NCBI GenBank assembly: GCA_004335835.1
Contig: RWJK01001610.1
Coordinates: 44,461 to 108,460, forward strand
DNA: 64,000 bases
Source: Scenedesmus sp. ARA3
Lineage: Eukaryota; Chlorophyta; Chlorophyceae; Sphaeropleales; Scenedesmaceae
Direction of reading: 5' to 3'
Numbering within the stretch: position 1 is the first letter of the stretch; every line of letters starts with the position of its first letter. Below the pieces are notes generated by a model, which saw only the letters and a program-made list of their open reading frames with translations, was not told the DNA's origin and made no database searches. This document shows, one piece after another, positions 173 to 62,654 of this stretch. Both the position numbers and the translations under genes were made by a program.

Positions 173-3100
173 CTGCGTGCGCAGGTCCGCGATGCAGATG
201 AACTTCTTCAGCAGGTTCTTAGGCATCACATACGTGAAGCCTGCCTCCGCCACCTCATCACTGTTCACGTAGATGTGGTTCACGCGCAGGTGCAGGTTGG
301 CCGCACTGATCGCGCGGATGCGCCAGTCAGTCTTGCTGCCAAACGCGGCCTGCTCGTACGGACTCGTCGTGGTGACAATGAGCTCGTCGCCGTGCACGTT
401 GACAGACTTTGTTGTGACAGCCGTCATGTTGCCGCCCTCGCGGGCCTGCTTCTCAATCTCCGCGATCTGCTGCCGCTGCTGGCTAGGAGGTGTGATTTCC
501 GCTCCCAGGATGATGTCGCGGATCTCGGACTGCGTGAGCGCGTTGGGGTTGACGTTGTTCTTCTTGGCGTAGTCCGCCAGGATGAGGTCCTTGAGCGCAA
601 TCTCCACCTGCAGGGTTGAGGGCAGCAGCAGCAGCAGCATAAGGTTTAAACCTTGGCTTCCTTGACATAGCCGGCCAGGATCAGGTCTTTGTGCGCAATA
701 TCCACCTCGTCAAAGTACCAAACCAAGTGTATCACACACAATCTTGATATGGCATTGTCCCATGTGCCATGCACGTCAGATAGCCCTGCGACCGTCCGCT
801 CCCGCGCACCTTGATCCACGACTCGTCGGTGAGGCTGGGCCACATGTGGTGCGGCTGCGTCAGTATAAACCCGCCATGCGGCTTACATAACATGTGCAGG
901 CAAACGATCCCACCCCTGCACCTTGATCCAATGCTTGTCGGTGAGGCTGGGCCACACATGTGGTGCGGCTGCATTCGCATAAACTTGCCATTCAGCACCA
1001 CATCACATGTGCAGGCAAACCATCCCACCCCCGCACCTTGATCCACTGCTCGTCCGTGAGGCTGGGCCACACGTGGTGCGGCTGCGTCAGGATGGACTTG
1101 TCTGGCCGCAGCAGGCTGCGCGCCTTGTCTGGGTTGACGTGCAGCGCGCGCAGGATGAGGATGAGCCTGCTGAAGGCGGTGTAGCTGGAGATTGTCTTCA
1201 GCCAGTCGTCGTAGATGTTGAACAGCACCATCTGGGGCTCAGTGGCCTGCGGAAAAAAAAGAAAGAAGAAGCAGGCGGCGCAACTACACGTGAGAGGAGT
1301 GATGTTGAACAGCACCACCTGAGGTTTTGTGGCCTGCGGGAGTGCGGGATCTGGCATACAAAACAAAGCCGTTCGATGAAAACGCACCACATGCAGCACA
1401 TCCCTTGCCCCTGTGCACTACATGTAGCACATCAAATTGCTGCGAAGCACCTTGAACATAAGGCGGCTGAACTCCTACAGCTCCACATACCACGCAAATT
1501 GTAACACCAGCAGCACTGCAAATCAAGCCCCCACACCTTGAGGATGAGGTCTCTTCTCCAAACTTCTCCAGCTTCTCCAAACTTCTCCAGCTTGATAGAA
1601 CACGCAGGCAATCACACCGCATATACCAACACAGCATGCACCATAACATTGTCTGCAAAGCCAGGAAACCCACCTTGAGGATGAGGTCTCCAAACTCCAG
1701 CTTGACCCCAACTCATCCGCTCAACATGACGCCCCGACAATCACAACACATGCTCCGTAACACCGTACCACTGACTGCAACCCCGCCTCCCCCGCCCACC
1801 TTGAGGATGAGGTCTCCAAACTTCTCCAGCTTGATGGCGGCCTGGAATGGCAGCTGCAGCTCGCTGCCCGTGATCACGATGTTGGGGAAGTCCAGCAGGT
1901 GCACCTCCAGCGGGTCCAGCATGCCCTTGCGCGTCACGATGATGCGCTTCGGCTGCTCCTCAACGGGCAGCGAGCGCACCAGCGCAGCCACCTGCACGCA
2001 CAAGGAATCGCATTGATTGAGGCATGGTGAGAAGCACTGCTGCACTCCGTTGCATGACGACTACAGCACAACACACACTGTAGCACGCAATAGCAGCTGC
2101 AGCTAAAAGCACAAGGCCGCACCTCCTCTGCCGCCTTCCACTTGGCGAGCTGGCTCAGGCACTTCTGGCCCGCCCACACGCATATGGCTGGGGCAGCAGC
2201 ACAGCACGGAAATGTCAAACCAGAAGCCAAAAAACGCAAACAAAACCTGACAAAGACACACCTCCTCTGCCGTCTTCCACTTGGCGAGCTGGCTGAGGCG
2301 CTTCTGGCCCGCCCACACGCATGTGGCTGGGGCAGCAGCACAGCACGGAAACATCAAGCCAAAAGCCAAAAAACGCGAACAAAACCTGACAAACACACAC
2401 CTGCTCTGCCGTCTTCCACTTGGCGAGCTGGCTGAGGCGCTTCTGGCCCGCCCACACGCATTTGGCTGGGGCAGCAGCACAGCACGGAAACATCAAGCCA
2501 AAAGCCAAAAAACGCAAACAAAACCTGACAAACACACACCTCCTCTGCCGTCTTCCACTTGGCGAGCTGGCTGAGGCGCTTCTGGCCCGCCCACACGCTG
2601 GTGTGGATGATCTTGAGGAAGAGCTGGCCCGTGCGCGGGTTGAAGATGAAGATGCCGCCGTTGATGGGCTTGGTGGTCAGGTTGCCCTCAAACGTCTTGT
2701 GGATCGTCACCCTGCGAGGTGTCACAAGGCAGCAACAGCACACACAGGGGTAAATCACCACGTAGACGACATCATACACAGCATGTTGATCACTGAGCCA
2801 GCTGCTGCACTCGCTGCAGGACAGCACAGGCCGCCATGCCACCTGGGCAGGTTAGAAGGGCACATGCTGCAGCAGTGCTGCGGACCCCAACCCATGCTGC
2901 AAGGGGACCCCGCCTGCCACACACCCTCCACAGTCCTCAAACAGGCAGTGGCACCACCCGAGCCCGCTCTAAGCCTACTGCCCAAGCCCCACCCCAGCCT
3001 ACTGCCCACCCACCATCAGCCTGTCTTGCCATTCCCACCTGTACACGTTGGTGTCGTCCACGAACCAGATGATCTGGTTGGAGAAGAGCTCGCCGTAGTT

Positions 3101-62654: not shown

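What the first reader, a model, noticed from the sequence alone, without database searches (positions are those of the whole stretch)
655..62465. Recurrent duplication of exon-intron junctions: introns carry partial copies of the neighbouring exon edge
Seen directly: in PRP8 (at least 16 introns), SART3 (4), EF3 (3) and NDUFV1 (3), the intron holds one to four copies of the adjacent exon's last or first 30-150 bp, almost always with the splice site attached. Hand-measured spacing is mostly 85-140 bp (one of 248). Donor and acceptor sides are both affected, and copies range from near-identical to barely recognisable. Inference: short tandem duplications arise often in this genome; those straddling a junction survive because splicing removes the surplus, whereas those inside exons are purged. 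This would keep producing competing splice sites, cassette exons and longer introns. I know of no description of this as a genome-wide pattern.
Basis: partly seen in the sequence, partly recalled or inferred. Interest (0 to 1): 0.87.

Follow-up and report, generated by a model that had tools for sequence, protein, structure and literature searches.

The report
Exon-edge copies piling up in introns
In this green alga many introns contain decayed copies of the neighbouring exon's edge, splice site included, stacked about 120 bases apart; the copies look as if they came from a different version of the gene, so they may record past exchanges between diverged chromosomes and a way introns grow.

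Summary
In four genes of the window, 22 of 70 introns hold a strong copy of their own exon edge; reverse-complement, shuffled and non-adjacent controls give none at that threshold. With five chaperonin genes from elsewhere in the genome the count is 48 of 116 introns. Copies lie 80-185 bp apart in 94 of 101 steps.

Intron-only repeats are scarce: 12, against 67 at exon edges. In 39 of 101 copies the intron flank shows no homology although the exon part is about 90% identical, and the splice-site core resembles an independent working site. Exon and copy differ mostly at third codon positions, 246 synonymously and 7 not; copies also differ from each other most often there.

Best reading: junction-crossing overlaps of about 120 bp whose two edges stem from diverged haplotypes that exchange only in exons, followed by decay and local re-duplication. 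The second haplotype was not seen, and three of seven genes do not need it. Organism: Tetradesmus/Scenedesmus (EF3 99% identical).

The parts
608..1036 (-). PRP8 intron 33: donor-edge copies 810-866 and 922-972, acceptor-edge copy 661-705
1247..1799 (-). PRP8 intron 32: donor-edge copies 1537-1574 and 1674-1705, acceptor-edge copy 1301-1333
1992..2539 (-). PRP8 intron 31: donor-edge array, unit 139 bp, copies 2123-2181, 2262-2320, 2401-2459; for the two copies nearest the exon the whole unit is homologous, i.e. young tandem duplication
3261..3668 (-). PRP8 intron 29: donor-edge copy 3540-3579 next to a 27-bp VNTR 3415-3554
4780..5112 (-). PRP8 intron 26: acceptor-edge copy 4849-4886, exon part 38 of 38 identical, no flank homology
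6527..6890 (-). PRP8 intron 22: acceptor-edge copy 6584-6632
6961..8396 (-). PRP8 intron 21: donor-edge copies 8142-8191, 8270-8317 and a third at about 8023-8072
10436..10660 (-). PRP8 intron 16: acceptor-edge copy 10501-10549
11874..12211 (-). PRP8 intron 14: donor-edge copies 12007-12047, 12105-12146
13204..13511 (-). PRP8 intron 11: donor-edge copy 13421-13453
14448..14823 (-). PRP8 intron 8: acceptor-edge copy 14520-14562
15823..16876 (-). PRP8 intron 5: acceptor-edge copies 15914-15955, 16064-16088, 16172-16213
17036..17548 (-). PRP8 intron 4: donor-edge copies 17316-17360, 17427-17471 and a decayed one near 17224
17734..18479 (-). PRP8 intron 3: donor-edge copy 18338-18414, 145 bp from the junction
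18711..19275 (-). PRP8 intron 2: donor-edge copy 19156-19208
22673..23081 (+). SART3 intron 3: acceptor-edge copy 22949-22983
24937..25523 (+). SART3 intron 8: donor-edge copy whose exon part runs 138 bp, 248 bp from the junction (its 80-bp edge aligns at 25105-25184), and acceptor-edge copy 25424-25452
46067..46366 (-). EF3 intron 13: donor-edge copy 46259-46311
49561..50039 (-). EF3 intron 5: donor-edge copies 49795-49863, 49915-49949
58199..58797 (+). NDUFV1 intron 4: acceptor-edge array, unit 99 bp, copies 58600-58654, 58699-58753; flank 119 of 120 identical to that of the nearest copy, exon part 52 of 55 (by eye all three differences are at third positions)
58982..59239 (+). NDUFV1 intron 5: donor-edge copy 59061-59101
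61893..62590 (+). NDUFV1 intron 12: donor-edge copies 61984-62022, 62101-62139, 62307-62342

Best explanation
Shown: Shown: exon and copy differ mainly by synonymous third-position changes, with 4-5% change at first and second positions; copies differ from each other about twice as often at third positions as at the others. Inferred: copy and present exon come from different, diverged haplotypes. A backward template switch or illegitimate exchange of about 120 bp between homologues joins the end of one haplotype's junction to the start of the other's, leaving both exon edges in tandem. Only junction-crossing events both keep the message intact and leave a recognisable repeat, because the two haplotypes' introns are too different to align. 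The surplus edge becomes intronic and decays neutrally; some units are later re-duplicated on the same chromosome (whole-unit homology), and the exon itself can be exchanged again by exon-limited conversion.
For: Third positions 253 mismatches of 1693 (0.149) against 80 of 1692 and 65 of 1696 at positions 1 and 2; third-position mismatches 246 synonymous, 7 not (69% synonymous expected at random). Third-position transversions 112 synonymous, 7 not (55% expected, p 2e-21); one copy per edge 65 and 5, p 1.6e-12. Copy against copy, neither being the exon: 92 of 1136, 66 of 1139, 165 of 1144 (pairs not independent, synonymous share not computed). Flank identity 0.64 (median) beside exon identity 0.93, shuffled 0.61; copy-copy 0.66 beside 0.91. 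Copies without flank homology (z<1): 18 donor copies match the used donor at +1,+2,+3,+5 in 0.83-0.94, at +4 in 0.56, at +6 to +8 in 0.22-0.28; 21 acceptor copies at -1 to -3 in 0.86-0.90, -4 and -5 in 0.67, -7 in 0.29, i.e. sites like independent functional ones. Some flank homology survives in a continuum (z>2 in 15 of 41 against 1 of 33 control introns), so flanks look like diverged relatives. Few intron-only families (12 of 79). NDUFV1 intron 4: flank 119 of 120 identical yet exon part 52 of 55. Decay: GT lost in 8 of 52, AG in 8 of 49, in-frame stop in 3 of 101 copies.
Against: No second haplotype was seen: the PRP8 segment searched has one full match in the assembly, the window itself. 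By gene, PRP8, EF3 and L035 show a third-position excess of only about twofold, which exon drift after copying could explain; the strong excess comes from L033, L034, NDUFV1 and SART3. The copy-copy excess is also only about twofold. Eight copies show no substitution against the exon over 28-66 scored positions (three of them have gaps), six of these with flank z below 2.5, which also fits exon-only gene conversion. Haplotypes whose introns cannot be aligned while third positions differ by about 11% need strong codon constraint (GC3 0.87) or frequent exon-limited exchange. The narrow 120-bp step and the large differences between genes are not explained.
Confidence: 0.45

Rival explanations
1. 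Old same-chromosome tandem duplications whose exon parts are kept alike by gene conversion from the exon, while the intron parts drift apart.
For: Continuum of flank homology with nearly flat exon identity; young whole-unit arrays exist (15 of 101 with z>6); substitution-free copies with unrelated flanks; in PRP8, EF3 and L035 the third-position excess is no more than exon drift could give.
Against: Conversion should carry donor +4 along with +3 and +5, but it matches in 0.56 only (10 of 18); copy-copy third-position excess; no clustering of mismatches into tracts (z -0.01 +- 0.16, n 38, low power).
Confidence: 0.25
2. One reading: random short tandem duplications anywhere, neutral afterwards; junction-crossing ones survive because splicing removes the surplus.
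For: Frequent local repeats; whole-unit duplications such as PRP8 intron 31 and NDUFV1 intron 4.
Against: Intron-only share 12 of 79 against an estimated 0.42-0.54; flank often not homologous where the exon part is 97-100% identical; synonymous bias of the differences.
Confidence: 0.1
3. The copies are kept by selection as functional decoy or alternative splice elements.
For: Splice dinucleotides 84-85% intact; copy site scores at least as high as the used site in 41 of 101.
Against: First and second codon positions differ by 5% even in PRP8, no consistent second splice site, distances are not multiples of three (remainders 0, 1, 2: 17, 24, 11 of 52); exon synonymous sites would have to be frozen too.
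Confidence: 0.08
4. Assembly artefact: contigs of two haplotypes laid end to end with unmerged overlaps.
For: Overlap geometry, narrow step size and synonymous differences would fit; 4 of 16 random stretches contain N. No reads were available.
Against: Copies have lost splice sites, indels and some stops, 68 of 101 have at least one nonsynonymous difference, and 26 of 58 edges hold two or more flush copies, some at an exactly constant step.
Confidence: 0.07
5. RNA-mediated copying of exon edges (splicing intermediate or cDNA) into the intron.
For: Sharp end of homology at the splice site.
Against: Residual flank homology, arrays with whole-unit homology, independent splice core.
Confidence: 0.05

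Closest known systems
[quoted passage not shown] Hellsten et al. 2011, as described in PMC3443670 and PMC4974935; passages of these two seen, the originals not)
   Same: Short tandem duplication involving splice signals, harmless because splicing removes the surplus.
   Different: There an exonic AGGT segment makes a new intron; here existing introns are lengthened, no new intron was found, and only a minority of units show whole-unit homology.
Potato RdRp case (PMC4974935, abstract and passages seen)
   Same: A duplication crossing an intron-exon boundary.
   Different: One gene, one event creating a new intron; here 48 of 116 introns examined, repeated arrays, a 120-bp step, often mismatched flanks.
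Internal gene duplication (Gao and Lynch 2009, cited in PMC3443670 and PMC4974935; paper itself not read)
   Same: Duplications within genes, including intron-containing segments.
   Different: As cited there, segments with whole introns; here exon edges with one splice site.
Tandem duplications from paired single-strand breaks or patch repair in plants (Schiml et al. 2016; Vaughn and Bennetzen 2014; recalled, not read)
   Same: Duplicated stretches of tens to about a hundred bases, sometimes with filler.
   Different: No junction bias or haplotype signature known to me.
Introner elements (recalled; a paper on them listed)
   Same: Lineage-specific intron growth.
   Different: In the one segment tested the spacers have no relatives elsewhere apart from CAG runs.

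Membership tests
Plain junction-crossing tandem duplication | Whole unit (exon part and intron part) homologous | tested here: not met
   Clear in 15 of 101 copies (z>6), weak in 23 (z 2.5-6), doubtful in 24 (z 1-2.5), absent in 39 (z<1)
Plain junction-crossing tandem duplication | Intron-only duplications as common as chance predicts | tested here: not met
   12 of 79 against an estimated 0.42-0.54; faster fading of intron-only pairs not corrected for
[quoted passage not shown]
   Copies lie inside introns of an exon chain that is open without them
Tandem exon duplication / mutually exclusive exons | Copy has acceptor and donor | tested here: not met
   Acceptor at inner end of donor-edge copies 16 of 52 (random windows 0.18, same place in exon 13 of 52); donor at inner end of acceptor-edge copies 3 of 49 (random 0.14)
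Introner elements | Same sequence at many loci | tested here: not met
   DNA search of one 3841-bp segment with three such introns: besides itself, hits at CAG runs and the 27-bp VNTR (the search skips very common words)
Exchange between diverged haplotypes | Differences accumulated under coding constraint | tested here: met
   246 synonymous, 7 nonsynonymous at third positions over seven genes; strong in four genes, not needed in PRP8, EF3, L035
Exchange between diverged haplotypes | A living haplotype carrying the copy's states and flank | not testable with these tools
   No second copy of the searched segment in the assembly; no nucleotide data of other strains at hand

The most novel reading that the evidence does not exclude
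Introns of this alga are an archive of exchanges between haplotypes so diverged that only exons still recombine: every exon-edge copy marks a switch point between two ancestral chromosomes, and intron lengthening is a by-product of recombination being confined to exons.
Probability: 0.35. Interest if true: 0.88.

Novelty: new variant of a known kind. Interest (0 to 1): 0.72.

Why it matters
It gives a concrete, countable route by which introns lengthen and acquire competing splice sites. The table in PMC5966456 (passage seen) lists a mean intron of 462 bp for Tetradesmus obliquus against 230-302 bp in four other green algae, which this would help explain. If the haplotype reading holds, fossil allele fragments inside introns would let one read past recombination and lost alleles from a single genome. 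It also warns that gene predictors can call the copies as exons, as my own simple predictor did in PRP8.

Tried and rejected
Cassette micro-exons: looked likely by eye in a few copies, not supported by counts. Introner family: no relatives of the spacers in the one segment searched. Selection on copies as coding sequence: first- and second-position differences too frequent. Transition bias, CpG and base composition as causes of the third-position excess: controls keep it. Mismatch clustering as a sign of conversion tracts: none, low power. A splice-site test at the ends of repeats in random loci was too weak (30 of 78 against 17 of 78 for a wrong-end control). A first estimate of codon positions skipped 28 of 61 edges for ambiguous frame (its copy-copy third-position excess was larger than that) and was replaced. 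A four-protein spliced alignment failed on a script bug; one search stopped with an error after its first results. Two of the first three chaperonin loci (L033, L034) were chosen after their family hits hinted at duplicates; the two added later (L036, L037) showed no such hint.

Full report
The window and its source. The window lies in an 87.3-Mb, 1567-contig genome. EF3 is 99% identical to Tetradesmus obliquus EF3 and NDUFV1 93% to a T. obliquus protein (best BLASTP alignments to joined-exon queries); GC is 57.4%, as published for T. obliquus (57%, PMC5966456, passage). So it is a Tetradesmus/Scenedesmus green alga or a close relative.

The observation. A scan without annotation found 66 local direct repeats against 0, 0 and 0 in three shuffles, with distances peaking at 80-145 bp. 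In 16 other stretches of about 10 kb it found 266 repeats against 1 in one shuffle of each, most often at 100-160 bp; 7 of 16 stretches are dense (24-48 repeats) and 9 sparse (0-6). With gene models, 22 of 70 introns of PRP8, EF3, NDUFV1 and SART3 hold a copy of their own exon edge, all controls being empty at the threshold. PRP8 models rest on a spliced alignment with several exon borders set by hand to give an open frame; SART3 borders were chosen by eye and gave one open frame. Three chaperonin genes gave 23 of 27 introns, but two of these loci were picked after their family hits hinted at duplicates; two others gave 0 of 9 and 3 of 10; in all 48 of 116, with strong differences between genes (p 5e-6). 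The chaperonin exons are picks from my own predictor; the L033 chain carries stops in its first two exons, whose frames were set one by one. In the random stretches, 10 of 27 predicted introns carry an edge copy, reverse-complement control 0.

Anatomy. Pooling seven genes (L036 and L037 not included), 61 edges carry 115 copies, 101 of them flush with the junction within 3 nt; the other 14 were left out of later counts. GT is kept in 44 of 52, AG in 41 of 49 (background 0.075 and 0.061).

Why plain tandem duplication is not enough. If a unit of exon edge plus intron head were duplicated and then drifted, both halves should stay alike. They do in a minority (PRP8 intron 31, NDUFV1 intron 4; 15 of 101 with z>6). 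In 39 of 101 the flank has no detectable homology (z<1) while the exon part differs by about 9% (rates 0.059, 0.051, 0.164). Pairs of copies, neither being the exon, behave the same: exon part 0.91, flank 0.66, shuffled flank 0.61. Repeat families lying in introns only are 12 against 67 at edges, where I estimate 0.42-0.54 for random placement; by eye several of the 12 are in register with edge arrays, but intron-only pairs also fade faster, which was not corrected for. Weak flank homology in others (15 of 41 with z>2 against 1 of 33 control introns) suggests that flanks are diverged relatives, not foreign inserts.

The splice sites of the copies. In copies without flank homology, donor positions +1,+2,+3,+5 agree with the used donor in 0.83-0.94, +4 in 0.56 and +6 to +8 in 0.22-0.28 (18 copies). 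That is close to how two independently evolved functional donors compare, less some decay; a copied and decayed donor should keep +4 like +3 and +5. The acceptor side (21 copies) is similar: -1 to -3 0.86-0.90, -4 and -5 0.67, -7 0.29.

Codon positions. Exon against copy: 80 of 1692, 65 of 1696 and 253 of 1693 mismatches at positions 1, 2 and 3. At position 3, 246 are synonymous and 7 not, where random change gives 69% synonymous. Transversions alone: 112 and 7 (55% expected); one copy per edge: 65 and 5. CpG and G/C-only controls keep the excess. Copies differ from each other more at position 3 as well (92 of 1136, 66 of 1139, 165 of 1144), though less strongly. By gene the third-position rate is 0.104 in PRP8, 0.182 in L033, 0.166 in L034, 0.169 in NDUFV1, 0.167 in EF3, 0.13 in SART3 and 0.079 in L035. 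Set against positions 1 and 2, PRP8, EF3 and L035 alone would be compatible with exon drift after copying; the others are not. Thus part of the difference appears to have arisen while both sequences were coding, before one became intronic; afterwards the copy decayed by roughly 4%.

Reading. The simplest account that covers all of this is that exon and copy derive from diverged haplotypes that recombine only where they are still alike, in exons. A junction-crossing overlap of about 120 bp leaves both edges in tandem and keeps the message; an overlap wholly within introns leaves no recognisable repeat because the two introns differ; one within an exon would break the protein. Which came first, the overlap between haplotypes or a same-chromosome duplication later touched by exon-limited exchange, I cannot tell. 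The other haplotype was not seen. Exon-only gene conversion remains the main rival. The step size and the patchiness are unexplained.

Artefact. Lost splice sites, stops in 3 of 101 copies, nonsynonymous differences in 68 of 101 and two or more flush copies at 26 of 58 edges speak against an assembly origin, but no reads were available.

Literature. The listings of searches (open-access PMC only; one search returned nothing) showed no paper that by title or abstract describes such a pattern; the nearest are single junction-crossing or AGGT duplications that create introns (PMC4974935, PMC3443670, passages seen). The passages shown of a Haematococcus genome paper (PMC7617258) mention no such thing. 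Subscription papers were not searchable.

Noticed in passing
window:10965-11225 and 18017-18244: Two long PRP8 introns share an element 79% identical over about 246 bp; the genome search found two further partial matches (C1557, C796), a lower bound.
   Followed up: partly
window:3415-3554: A 27-bp VNTR inside PRP8 intron 29 whose unit contains the exon-edge motif CACCTGTGCAGGT (by eye); stretches 75-76% alike occur on contigs C1220 and C359.
   Followed up: partly
G000 random stretches L003-L018 and CCT genes: Duplication density is patchy: 7 of 16 random stretches dense, 9 sparse; one CCT gene has copies in 10 of 10 introns, another in 0 of 9.
   Followed up: partly
P0001 (Haematococcus lacustris PRP8 model): The predicted protein repeats two blocks (89 of 89 and 280 of 283 residues identical), perhaps a real internal duplication or an assembly fault there.
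   Followed up: partly
window:63450-63523: A tRNA gene on the minus strand.
   Followed up: no
window, many places: CAG/CTG triplet runs are very common.
   Followed up: no
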